Positions 92-27,176 of a stretch of DNA of 36,773 nt are shown piece after piece. The translations under genes were made by a program, and so were the position numbers. This DNA comes from Verrucomicrobiota bacterium (GTDB lineage Bacteria > Verrucomicrobiota > Verrucomicrobiia > Chthoniobacterales > JAFAMB01). The notes beneath the pieces are model-generated. The model was given only the letters and a program-made list of their open reading frames with translations, searched no databases and was not told the DNA's origin. The stretch spans positions 1 to 36,773 of the forward strand of contig JAFBAP010000074.1 of NCBI GenBank assembly GCA_019247695.1, in the 5' to 3' direction. The number at the start of each line of letters is the position of its first letter. Position 1 is the first letter of the stretch.

Positions 92-126
92 GCAACTACA
101 CCCATTTTCAGGATGATTGAGCTGTG
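92..126 (+). repeat. IS630 left terminal inverted repeat
   Basis: This 35-nt arm matches the reverse complement of 1076-1110 at 30 positions. It begins GCAACTACACC and ends TTGAGCTGTG. The transposase stop codon lies within it. Confidence 0.8.
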
Positions 127-1063
127 AGGGGGTAGCCACAATGTTTAAACCAGCCCCGGGCATCTTGGGCCGTGATGGTTTGGAGCCCCGCGCCGATAGC
201 CGCCTCCAACGCCTCGCGCGTGCGCGCCTGCACCCGGCGTAAAAACGTCTTGAGCTTCGAAAAGGCCCCCTCGATGGGGTTGAAATCCGGGCTATAGCGC
301 GGCAAAAACACCAACCGGCAGCCGCAGGCTTCGATGCGCTCGCGCACCGCTTGGGCTTTATGGACTGAGCAGGTTATCCCTGAGCACGGTCTTGCCGGGC
401 CGTAAGGCCGGGCAGAGGAACTTATCAAGGTAGAGCAGGAAGGCTTCGGTGTCGGCGGCCCCTTCGACCGTCATGGTCGTCAAGAGCCCCTCAGGGCTCA
501 GGGCGGCCAACACGGTGGTGTTTTTACCCCGGTTGGTGGGGGCTTTTCCCCAGGCGCGCTGGCCTTTGGGGGCCCAGCCGTAGCGGGGCGCCAAGGCCAG
601 GTTGGACCCGCTTTCATCGACGAAGACCAAGTCGCTCGGCTTTAAGGCGTCGTGGTCTTGCCGCCAAGTCGCCCGCTCGGCTTCGTCGCGTTCGCTGGCG
701 GTGAGCTTTTTTTTTGTGCGTCCAGTCCAAGGCGCGGCGCGCCCGGTGTAAAGTGGCCACGCTGACGGCCTGACCGCTCTGGGCCTGCCAGCGCTGGCAA
801 TGATCGATCAAGCGGCCGTCGGGCTCGGCTTGGAGTTGGGCGGCTAAGGCCGCCCGGGCTTCCGGCGTGCCAAAGGCGCCGTGCGGGCCAGGCCGGTAGG
901 TTTTGGGCGCCAGGCTTTGGCCGGAGCGCCGCTTCAAGAGCCAACGTTTCAAGCTGGCCCATGATACGCTAAAGAGCCGCACGACTTCGGCGTGGGGCAA
1001 GCCGTTCTCGACGACGGCCGCCACGGCCCGCTCGCGCAGGTCCACTGAATACGGCTTGGACAT
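108..1063 (-). pseudogene. IS630-family transposase, two frameshifts
   Basis: This is a DDE transposase in three reading-frame pieces. The N-terminal helix-turn-helix region begins MSKPYSVDLRERAVAAV (ATG at 1061-1063). The first catalytic Asp is in LVFVDESGS (about 600-625). The second is in VLRDN (about 380), followed after a frame change by SVHKAQAV. The final DE pair is in YSPDFNPIEGAFSKLK (about 260-300). The first frame change lies at a run of nine A residues (nine T on the plus strand, 708-716); reading one base further gives LTASERDEAERATW and then the first Asp. The second is one extra base near 370-377, beside the second catalytic Asp; removing one C gives DNLSVHKAQ. The A9 run could allow transcriptional slippage, but the second lesion is not in a homopolymer, so the gene is probably inactive. 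Confidence 0.85.
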
Positions 1064-1075
1064 CGCCCACCAAAG

Positions 1076-1110
1076 CACAGCTCAACCAACTTGAAAACCG
1101 GTGTAGTTGC
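1076..1110 (-). repeat. IS630 right terminal inverted repeat
   Basis: This is the partner of 92-126 on the opposite strand, with five mismatches in 35 nt. It lies just upstream of the transposase start at 1063, where the element's promoter would be expected. Confidence 0.8.
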
Positions 1111-24766: not shown

Positions 24767-24968
24767 GCAATACCCGGCCATGTATCCTTAACTAAATGGC
24801 AGAGGGGTTCCACAATGGGAATGGGACCCTCCCACCGGTCAAACCCTGTACGGGCGGCAGAACCCGCGAGCGGCGCCTTCTGCCGCCCTTTCAGGGCTCG
24901 ATCGTGATTGTACGGTTACCCAGGGGGTAAAGCCCTGGGCTAGGTTCTCCTGGCCCTGATACCGTTTC
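24767..24968. repeat. Palindromic repeat modules left of the IS110 element
   Basis: This stretch contains CCTTAACTAAATGGCAG (24790-24806), matching 1456-1472 in the same orientation, which shows the two repeat clusters share order as well as sequence. It also contains CGCCTTCTGCCGCCCTTTCAG (about 24874-24894) and GGGGTAAAGCCCTGGGCTAG (24925-24944), diverged versions of boxes found at 26978-26998, 36757-36773, 1476-1513 and 26848-26885. No gene. Confidence 0.6.
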
Positions 24969-24971
24969 CAC

Positions 24972-25039
24972 AGTTATGCACCGGCGCCGCCAAAAGGCCG
25001 CCCCCCAGCCGTTCTCCACCGCGGCGCCGGTGCATAACT
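24972..25039 (+). ncRNA. Leader hairpin 1 of IS110 element (candidate bridge RNA)
   Basis: Arms 24972-24990 and 25021-25039 are perfectly complementary over 19 bp (AGTTATGCACCGGCGCCGC pairs with GCGGCGCCGGTGCATAACT) with a 30-nt loop. Together with hairpin 2 it forms a two-lobed structure upstream of the transposase, the position of bridge RNAs in IS110-group elements. RNA identity is inference. Confidence 0.4.
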
Positions 25040-25104
25040 TGGCCGCGACCCAACCCGAGCTTGTGAATAACCCCGGGCCGTGTCAGAAAGTGAGTGGCAG
25101 CTTT

Positions 25105-25178
25105 GCCTCCGGGCCGGCACGGTCTTCCCGCCCCCGCTCCCCGAGAGCTTCCCGAAGATCACCGGCCGGCCCGCAGGC
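25105..25178 (+). ncRNA. Leader hairpin 2 of IS110 element (candidate bridge RNA)
   Basis: Arms 25105-25118 and 25165-25178 pair at 13 of 14 positions. The stem continues, past one bulged A and a three-base bulge, with CGGT/ACCG (25120-25123 with 25161-25164) and CTTC/GAAG (25124-25127 with 25154-25157), leaving a 26-nt terminal loop. It ends 121 nt before the transposase start. Confidence 0.4.
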
Positions 25179-25299
25179 TTCGGTCCCAACGTCTGAGAGA
25201 ACTACATCCCATGAGGATCCTGTATCAGGTCGACTCCGGACTGAAGCGCAGGCTGAGGCTGCGGCTCCCCGCTCCCAACCCCCCCACCCGAAAGTCCCT

Positions 25300-26552
25300 A
25301 TGGCTACTACCCCCCAAGCCCCCTTCGCTCACTTCGCGAGCATCGACTGGGCCAAGCACAAGCATCATGCCCTCATCCTCAACCCCGCCGGCCACACCGT
25401 CGCGGAGTTCGACTTCGCGCACTCCGCCACCGGTTGGCAGGAGTGGCGCGAGCAAGCCGCGCGCTTTGCGCCTTTAGCCGTGGCGATCTCTGACCAGCCA
25501 AGGCACCGTCATCGACCAGTTGCTCCGCACCCCCGAGTGCACCATCTTCCCGCTCAACCCCAAAGCCGCCCAACGTTACCGCGAGCGCAAAGCCCCCAGC
25601 GGCACCAAAAGTGATCACCTGGATGGCTGGAGCTTTGCCGACGCGGCGCGCCTGGATTGGGCCCATTGGCGGCCGCTGTGCCGCCAGGACCCCCTCTTGG
25701 ACCACTTACGGCTACTGTGCCGCGACGAGGTGGCCTTGATCGAAGAGCGCACCGCCTTAGTCAACCAACTTATCGCCGCGCTGCATGAGTACTACCCCAC
25801 GGCCCTGGCGGCCTTTGAGGACTGGACGCTGCCGTCGGCTTGGGCGTTTCTCGAAGCGTTCCCCACCCCGCAGGCCCTGGCCCGTGGCGGCAAACGCCGC
25901 TCTCGAGAAATTCCTGCACACCCACAAGCTGGCCCGGCCCGCAACCTACCAGAAGCGCCTGGCGCTCTTCGCCCAGGCGCTGGCCTTTCCGGCCTCGGAG
26001 GCCCTCACCTTAGCCAAGAGCCGCCTGGCCCTGACGCGCGCCCGCCAGCTACGGGTGCTGCAGGCGCAGTTGGACGACTACCGGGAGCAAATCGAGAAGC
26101 TCTTTGCCCAACACCCCGATCATGAGCTGTTTGGCTCGCTGCCGGGGGCCGGCCCCAAACTGGCGCCGCGGCTGTTAGCCGAATTGGGGGATAATCGTCA
26201 GCAGTTTGCGTCGGCCCAGGCGCTGCAATGTTACGCCGGCACCGCTCCGGTCCGCTACCAAAGCGGCCCGGTCCATAAGGTGCGGCTGCGCGGGCCCTGC
26301 GACAAGGTCCTGCGGGCCACCGTGTACCTGTGGGCTGACTGTAGCCGGCATAGCTGCCCCTGGGCCCAGACCTATTACCAGACCCTGCGCAAACGGGGCA
26401 AAACCCACGCCTGCGCCTTACGTTGCCTGGGCCAGCGCTGGCTTAAAATCCTCTGGAAGATGTGGCAAACGCGCACCTGCTACGATGCGGAGTTGCATCA
26501 GAAAAACCAACTCCGCCACGGCTCCTGGGTGCTCAAACTGCAAACCGCTTAA
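25300..26552 (+). pseudogene. IS110-family transposase, two frameshifts
   Basis: A DEDD-type recombinase in three frames. Frame 1 from ATG 25300: FASIDWAKHKHHALIL with the first catalytic Asp16. Frame 2: SQGTVIDQLLRTPE, then KSDHLDGWSFADAARLD with the final Asp pair. Frame 3: ALEKFLHTHKLARP, then the C-terminal Transposase_20 region GSLPGAGPKLAPRLLAELG and YAGTAPVRYQSG with the conserved serine, ending VLKLQTA. The first shift (about 25483-25497) replaces the segment expected to hold the catalytic Glu (family pattern V-A-I-E-x-S-Q-G). The second (about 25898-25908) is corrected by removing one base, giving RRLEKFLHTH. Both are single extra bases. The original protein would be about 416 residues, usual for the family. 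The longer open frame upstream of 25300 crosses the hairpins and is not protein-like. Confidence 0.85.
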
Positions 26553-26635
26553 CCGGCTGCTCCCATGTCAATAACTTCGCGTAAAAATCCACTTGCAACC
26601 CAGAGAACATCTTCGGGGCTGAAATCCGGTCGAAA

Positions 26636-26665: not shown

Positions 26666-26847
26666 AGCTTTACCCCAGTTTTTTGAAGGCAACGCAAAGG
26701 AAAGCCGTCCCTGCCCTGCAGGGGCGTGGCGGAGTTTAGCCAGGGGCCTTAACGTTCGGTGCGAATCAGCCGATTCCGACCCGCGACACCGCCCGGAAAC
26801 GGCCCAGGGCGACCCGACCAAGGTTTTAGCCCCGAAGAGGCGTTTGA

Positions 26848-26885
26848 TGGCCTGAAGGGCCGAAGGAACATAGCCCAGGGTTTAC
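26848..26885 (-). repeat. GTAAACCC / GGCCCTTCAGGCC repeat box, copy 2
   Basis: On the minus strand this reads GTAAACCCTGGGCTATG, TTCCTTC, GGCCCTTCAGGCCA, nearly identical to 1476-1513. Confidence 0.75.
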
Positions 26886-27176
26886 CCTGGGAGACCGTCA
26901 AATTGTGATCAGCCCTCCTAAGGCGTCATGTCCGTACGCCCATCCTGACAAACGCCCGCCCCGCCGGGTTGGATTTGCTGAAGGGGCGGCAGAAGGCGTC
27001 GCTCCCGGGTCCTGTCGCCCGTTCAGGGCCAAAAGACGCTCGCGGGGCGATCCCCCGGCGCGGGCGGTTGATTGGCCTCAGCGTTGAAGGCCAGGTGGTC
27101 GATTTTCCGGCCGCCCCGCCGGAGCAAGGACCAGCTCAAACGTCGTGAGAATGGGTGTATACGATAGTTAGAGAAT

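What the first reader, a model, noticed from the sequence alone, without database searches (positions are those of the whole stretch)
24972..25300. Two strong hairpins ahead of an IS110 transposase: candidate bridge RNA
Seen: a perfect 19-bp stem with a 30-nt loop (24972-25039), then an interrupted stem of about 21 bp with a 26-nt terminal loop (25105-25178), both in the leader of about 330 bp before the DEDD transposase at 25300. Known: IS110-group elements encode a bridge RNA in the upstream non-coding end, whose two internal loops pair with target and donor DNA. Inference: the two lobes may be the target- and donor-binding loops of a diverged bridge RNA.
Basis: partly seen in the sequence, partly recalled or inferred. 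Interest (0 to 1): 0.6.

Follow-up and report, generated by a model that had tools for sequence, protein, structure and literature searches.

The report
Bridge RNA inside a junction-spanning ORF
The two hairpins belong to a real guide ("bridge") RNA of a jumping gene that aims at a repeated sequence, and in this group of elements the stretch that makes the guide RNA is also kept as one open reading frame that is complete only when the element has been cut out and closed into a circle.

Summary
The hairpins are real and lie in the left end of an IS110-family element (24958-26610, flanked by CT cores, inserted in a REP-like repeat). The leader is a bridge RNA. Hairpin 2 is the target-binding loop. 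Hairpin 1 is not a guide lobe: it sits where IS621 has its 5' stem-loop. In a training set (19 left and 18 right flanks) and a hold-out set (20 and 20), both target guides match each element's own insertion flanks far better than other elements' flanks (z 10-12; 0 of 100,000 permutations). Donor guides track the element ends, and stems covary. The copy in the window is decayed (two frameshifts). A further finding: in this subfamily the left end, bridge RNA included, is stop-free and in phase with the transposase (35 of 39; about 1.4 expected; 0 of 39 in the other frames), and the right end carries an in-phase start codon. So the excised circle would be almost entirely one open reading frame, split at the core by integration. 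Phase and openness are conserved; the peptide is not. IS621 lacks this. The ORF's function is inferred only.

The parts
24956..24957 (+). left CT core (target side)
   Evidence: comparison with second copy L002 and free REP-like repeats
24958..26610 (+). IS110-family element, 1653 bp, GATACCG...AGAACAT, inserted in a REP-like repeat
   Evidence: ends where similarity to free repeat copies stops and to L002 begins
24960..24965 (+). LE half (-10-like, TACCGT) of a promoter formed at the RE-LE junction of the circle
   Evidence: TAC..T conserved; -35 match peaks sharply at 17-nt spacing over 33 elements; 16 nt in this copy. Sequence only
24972..25039 (+). hairpin 1: long 5' stem-loop of the bridge RNA (not a guide lobe)
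   Evidence: 8 of 12 pairs with compensatory changes, 91.7% paired vs at most 49% when slid; IS621 5' stem-loop lies at about the same distance from the LE tip
25061..25089 (+). possible internal promoter TTGTGA-17-CAGAAA between hairpin 1 and the target-binding loop (weak)
   Evidence: seen by eye in this and several relatives; not tested
25105..25178 (+). hairpin 2 = target-binding loop (TBL)
   Evidence: covariation and guide/target agreement
25125..25132 (+). left target guide TTCCCGCC (poor fit to its own flank TCCTGGCC in this decayed copy)
   Evidence: register fixed by relatives
25151..25157 (+). right target guide CCCGAAG, exact complement of right flank CTTCGGG
25178..25246 (+). donor-binding loop (DBL), outer stem 25178-25186 / 25238-25246
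   Evidence: fold and covariation
25195..25203 (+). left donor guide GAGAGAACT, matches right end GAGAAC(AT)
   Evidence: LDG/RE agreement beyond permutation in 24 relatives
25222..25228 (+). right donor guide GTATCAG, complement of CTGATAC at the left tip
   Evidence: RDG/LE agreement in 26 relatives, including CTAATAC <-> GTATTAG switches
24958..25299 (+). left end kept open in the transposase frame (114 codons, 0 stops; 2 and 6 stops in the other frames)
25300..26552 (+). IS110 transposase (PF01548 + PF02371), pseudogene with two frameshifts
26565..26612 (+). right-end start codon ATG and 16 codons in phase with the left end across the circle junction (MSITSRKNPLATQRTS|DTVSTV...)
26593..26598 (+). 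RE half (-35-like, TTGCAA) of the junction promoter
26611..26612 (+). right CT core

Best explanation
This is a decayed copy of an IS110-group element with a bridge RNA in its left end. The RNA has a long 5' stem-loop (hairpin 1), a target-binding loop (hairpin 2) whose two guides pair with the two sides of the insertion site around a CT core, and a donor-binding loop whose guides pair with the element's own right and left ends. The recombinase-RNA complex excises the element as a circle and inserts it at sites that match the guides; here the site is a REP-like genomic repeat. Shown by sequence: boundaries, structure covariation, guide/target and guide/donor agreement, transposase family. Inferred: transcription from the junction promoter, and activity of intact relatives. 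In this subfamily the left end, including the bridge RNA, is also kept stop-free and in phase with the transposase up to its first base. The right end has an in-phase start codon, in many members behind a Shine-Dalgarno-like sequence. The excised circle (or a head-to-tail dimer) would therefore carry one ORF, from the right end across the core through the bridge RNA into the transposase, and integration splits it. My preferred reading of its role is that ribosomes are led through the leader into the transposase only in the circular form; the peptide itself is not conserved. That last step is inference.
For: Ends and core from free repeats and a second copy. Covariation: 25 of 33 pairs with double changes, 89.9% paired vs 29-48% when slid; hairpin 1. 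Target guides: training set LTG own 6.7 vs 3.2 shared bases, RTG 6.6 vs 3.4, z 10.9 and 10.8; hold-out LTG 7.05 vs 3.62, RTG 6.55 vs 3.47, z 11.6 and 10.0, 0 of 100,000 permutations each. Donor guides z 4.7 and 4.8. PDB: closest solved chains by sequence are IS621 and ISCro4 recombinases; NCBIfam NF033542 IS110 RNA-guided transposase above cut-off in three intact relatives. Junction ORF: 35 of 39 left ends stop-free in the transposase frame, 1.4 expected from shuffles, 0 of 39 in each other frame, 36 of 39 in phase; at under 60% identity 11 of 12 vs 0 and 0; in-phase ATG in the right end 24 of 34 vs 1 and 2.
Against: No RNA or protein data. In the window copy the left target guide fits its own flank poorly and the transposase is frameshifted, so this copy is probably inactive. 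Rfam has no match. For the ORF: no third-position bias of substitutions (538/537/579, p 0.35) and no unusual charge, so the peptide is not visibly selected; the likely junction-promoter start site lies downstream of the right-end start codon, so another, longer transcript would be needed; L048, L062, L103 and L118 break the phase or have stops, and L049 has one stop.
Confidence: 0.88

Rival explanations
1. One reading: hairpins 1 and 2 are the two guide lobes (target and donor) of the bridge RNA.
For: Two strong covarying hairpins in the leader.
Against: Donor guides lie in the third stem, downstream of hairpin 2 (LDG/RDG agreement); target guides lie in hairpin 2. Hairpin 1 matches IS621's 5' stem-loop in position, which is reported to be structurally conserved but sequence-diverse (PMC11208158).
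Confidence: 0.03
2. The stop-free, in-phase left end is chance or a side effect of high G+C content and conserved RNA elements; there is no junction-spanning ORF under selection.
For: No third-position bias; G+C 66% lowers stop frequency; some out-of-frame stops sit in conserved motifs.
Against: 1.4 stop-free expected, 35 seen; 0 of 39 in both other frames of the same sequences; holds among representatives below 60% identity; distances from LE tip to the target-binding loop differ by multiples of three in 9 of 10 hold-out length classes; in-phase ATG in the right end 24 of 34 vs 1 and 2.
Confidence: 0.1
3. The open left end serves read-in translation from a host gene upstream of the integrated element (fusion expression), not the circle.
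For: The frame is open to the very tip, so any in-phase insertion into a gene would fuse to the transposase.
Against: The start codon and Shine-Dalgarno-like sequences in the right end in the same phase have no use in that scheme. Insertion phase relative to host genes was not tested.
Confidence: 0.1
4. The extended protein is a functional form of the recombinase with a disordered N-terminal tail, rather than translation as such being the function.
For: Tail is joined in frame in nearly all members; short motifs recur (VNNSA, SERT.PHEG).
Against: The recurring motifs coincide with RNA stems and donor guides; substitutions show no codon bias; charge not unusual; no Pfam or NCBIfam domain in the tail.
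Confidence: 0.3
5. The hairpins are ordinary terminators or REP-like palindromes that happen to lie near a transposase.
For: The flanks are full of REP-like palindromes.
Against: The leader, hairpin 1 included, is found only in the three IS copies of the genome and is conserved with transposases across phyla.
Confidence: 0.01

Closest known systems
IS621 (IS110 group) and its bridge RNA, Durrant et al. 2024 (PMC11208160), Hiraizumi et al. 2024 (PMC11208158)
   Same: DEDD plus serine recombinase; RNA in the left end with 5' stem-loop, target-binding loop, donor-binding loop; four guides that include the CT core; promoter across the RE-LE junction; insertion into REP elements.
   Different: Hairpin 1 is much longer (68 nt) and followed by a linker of about 60 nt before the target loop; transposase subfamily below 40% identical to others in the plasmid collection and distant from IS621; left end stop-free and in phase with the transposase and with a start codon in the right end, whereas IS621 has stops in its left end.
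ISEc21 / IS110-type seekRNA elements, Siddiquee et al. 2024 (PMC11187229)
   Same: RNA from a non-coding end chooses the target; circular intermediate with junction promoter.
   Different: The region there is described as non-coding; a search of that paper for 'reading frame' and 'translation' found nothing.
ISCro4 recombinase (PDB 9t56)
   Same: Second closest solved structure by sequence.
   Different: Only the C-terminal half aligns at this level.

Membership tests
IS110 family, IS110 group | Transposase with DEDD RuvC-like domain (PF01548) and C-terminal serine domain (PF02371) | tested here: met
   Both models above cut-off in the window pieces and in intact relatives; acidic residues and a serine conserved in relatives. 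The window's own copy is frameshifted.
IS110 family, IS110 group | Long non-coding region upstream (left end), insertion around a short core | tested here: met
   342-nt left end, CT core on both sides, empty sites present as free repeats. 'Non-coding' is questionable here: the left end is an open frame.
Bridge RNA | 5' stem-loop, then two stem-loops with internal guide loops | tested here: met
   Covariation; fold.
Bridge RNA | LTG and RTG complementary to the target, covarying with it | tested here: met
   Permutation tests, training and hold-out.
Bridge RNA | LDG and RDG complementary to RE and LE, covarying with them | tested here: met
   (z 4.7 and 4.8; few variable positions).
Bridge RNA | sigma-70-type promoter across the RE-LE junction | tested here: inconclusive
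   -35-like match peaks at 17-nt spacing, TAC..T at -10; sequence only.
Bridge RNA | RNA expressed and bound by recombinase; needed for recombination | not testable with these tools
   No RNA-seq or binding data.
REP-targeting IS110 elements | Insertion inside a repetitive extragenic palindrome | tested here: met
   Flanks continue into a repeat with about 30 free copies in the genome.

The most novel reading that the evidence does not exclude
In a planctomycete/verrucomicrobial subfamily of IS110 elements the guide-RNA locus is also coding sequence. A start codon in the right end and an open left end are joined only by excision into one ORF that runs across the recombination core and through the bridge RNA into the transposase. 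Integration thus cuts the gene from its start, giving a translation switch set by the state of the element.
Probability: 0.7. Interest if true: 0.75.

Novelty: new variant of a known kind. Interest (0 to 1): 0.64.

Why it matters
It adds a separate subfamily, with natural guide/target pairs across about 40 elements, to the set of bridge RNAs whose programming rules can be read from sequence. If the junction-spanning frame is translated, one stretch of DNA serves as recombination end, guide RNA and coding sequence, and the element would have a start codon that works only in the excised circle. That would be a simple way to express recombinase when it is needed for re-insertion, and a constraint not described for bridge RNAs in the papers I could read. 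It is directly testable.

Tried and rejected
Hairpin 1 as a guide lobe: rejected, because guides map to hairpin 2 and the next stem. DnaA-box reading of GTTATnCAC in the hairpin arms: dropped, because relatives with GTTAGTCAC change both arms together, so pairing and not the box is kept. Internal promoter TTGTGA-17-CAnAAT between hairpin 1 and the target loop: left open, weak. Leader peptide as a conserved protein domain: no codon-position signal, no charge signal, no Pfam/NCBIfam match. Copies in plasmids by DNA: none. Viral contigs: none with the C-terminal query, one distant relative with the profile. A first clustering of left ends with a lenient global alignment gave inflated identities and was replaced. 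Literature searches for a junction-spanning ORF in IS110 elements found nothing in the held library; subscription papers are missing.

Full report
Observation. The following ORF is an IS110 transposase broken by two frameshifts. Rfam has no match.

Element. A search of the window's own genome found a second copy (L002, 86%), a fragment (L003, 75%) and about 30 free copies of the sequence that flanks the element. Lining these up places the element at 24958-26610 between two CT cores, inside a REP-like repeat whose empty form reads ...GCC-CT-TCGGGG.... The leader, hairpin 1 included, occurs nowhere else in the genome. Both full copies share a +1 insertion in the transposase gene (read from the alignment), so both are probably relics.

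Relatives. Profile and pattern searches found relatives in metagenome bins labelled Planctomycetota, Verrucomicrobiota and a few others, then a hold-out set from whole-genome searches. In the plasmid collection the best matches are below 40% identical. The nearest solved proteins by sequence are IS621 and ISCro4 recombinases, and NCBIfam calls three intact relatives IS110 RNA-guided transposases.

Bridge RNA. The relatives show, from the left tip: CT[GA]ATAC, a hairpin, a loop with a fixed length of about 33 nt between CACGGTC and the ATCACCGG stem, then a second loop with GAGAGAAC and GTATCAG. This is the order 5' stem-loop, target-binding loop, donor-binding loop of IS621 (PMC11208160, PMC11208158). 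Covariation supports all helices: 25 of 33 pairs in the two loops change on both sides, 89.9% of cells paired against 29-48% when slid; 8 of 12 pairs in hairpin 1. The guide test is the decisive one. In the training set the left guide shares on average 6.7 bases with its own left flank and 3.2 with other elements' flanks, the right guide 6.6 and 3.4 (z 10.9 and 10.8). The coordinates of some irregular members there were set by eye, so I repeated it on a hold-out set found later, with pattern rules (adjusted once, to catch members whose anchors varied): 7.05 vs 3.62 and 6.55 vs 3.47 (z 11.6 and 10.0; 0 of 100,000 permutations each). Donor guides follow the ends, for example left tip CTAATAC with GTATTAG (z 4.7 and 4.8). 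In the window copy the right guide CCCGAAG is the exact complement of CTTCGGG, while the left guide fits poorly, as one might expect of a relic. Hairpin 1 begins about 15 nt from the tip, as does the IS621 5' stem-loop. A -35-like element in the right end and TAC..T in the left end sit 17 nt apart in most relatives, so an RNA from the circle would begin at about hairpin 1. Transcription was not tested.

Junction-spanning frame. Translating the left ends in the transposase frame gave no stops in 35 of 39 elements, with 1.4 expected from shuffles and 0 of 39 in each of the other frames; 36 of 39 are in phase at the tip. Among 12 representatives less than 60% identical, 11 are stop-free, against 0 and 0. 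Distances from the tip to the target loop differ by multiples of three in 9 of 10 hold-out length classes. The right end continues this frame upstream: an in-phase ATG open to the junction is present in 24 of 34 against 1 and 2 in the other frames, planctomycete members use TTG or ATG behind AGGAGG-like sequences, and verrucomicrobial members place ATG a few codons after a stop. The window reads MSITSRKNPLATQRTS|DTVSTVMHRRRQ... for 130 codons up to the transposase. IS621 has stops in its left end, and stops were also found upstream of the transposase in Rhodococcus, Variovorax, Mycobacterium and viral-contig IS110 genes (element ends not defined for these), so this looks like a trait of the subfamily. 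Against a protein function: substitutions show no codon-position bias, charge is that of shuffles, and no domain is found. What is conserved is being open and in phase. My reading is that translation across the junction, possible only in the circle or a tandem dimer, carries ribosomes into the transposase; a tethered tail or read-in from host genes remain possible. One difficulty is that a junction-promoter transcript would start after the right-end start codon, so a longer transcript around the circle is required.

Limits.

Noticed in passing
window 26978-27028, 24836-24904, 26824-26883 and about 30 places in G000 (L006-L034): A family of REP-like palindromic repeats is spread through this genome and serves as the element's target.
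   Followed up: partly
L002 and window about 25850-25900: Two copies that differ by 14% share the same +1 insertion in the transposase gene; either they moved in trans after the damage or the shift is old. Programmed frameshifting was not tested.
   Followed up: no
L004/L005 (G000:C107:1-190): Two right ends of this element lie in tandem, the second following the CT core of the first, a trace of repeated insertion or a dimer.
   Followed up: no
window 25061-25071, 25030-25038 and 26566-26576: The motif GTGnATAAC of hairpin 1 recurs once in the linker and, in altered form (TGTCAATAAC), in the right end; several relatives show the same, for example L044, L053, L104. Possibly a recombinase or start-site signal.
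   Followed up: partly
L049 about 1238-1262: A 25-nt insertion in the donor-binding loop that brings the only stop into this left end.
   Followed up: no
window 108-1078, minus strand: ORF pieces that read like a broken IS630-type transposase (by eye from the translation, not tested).
   Followed up: no
L086, L106, L115, L116, L117, L118: A subgroup with left tip CTAATAC inserts before CTTGAC(A), a sequence that resembles a -35 box; it may favour promoters or one repeat.
   Followed up: no
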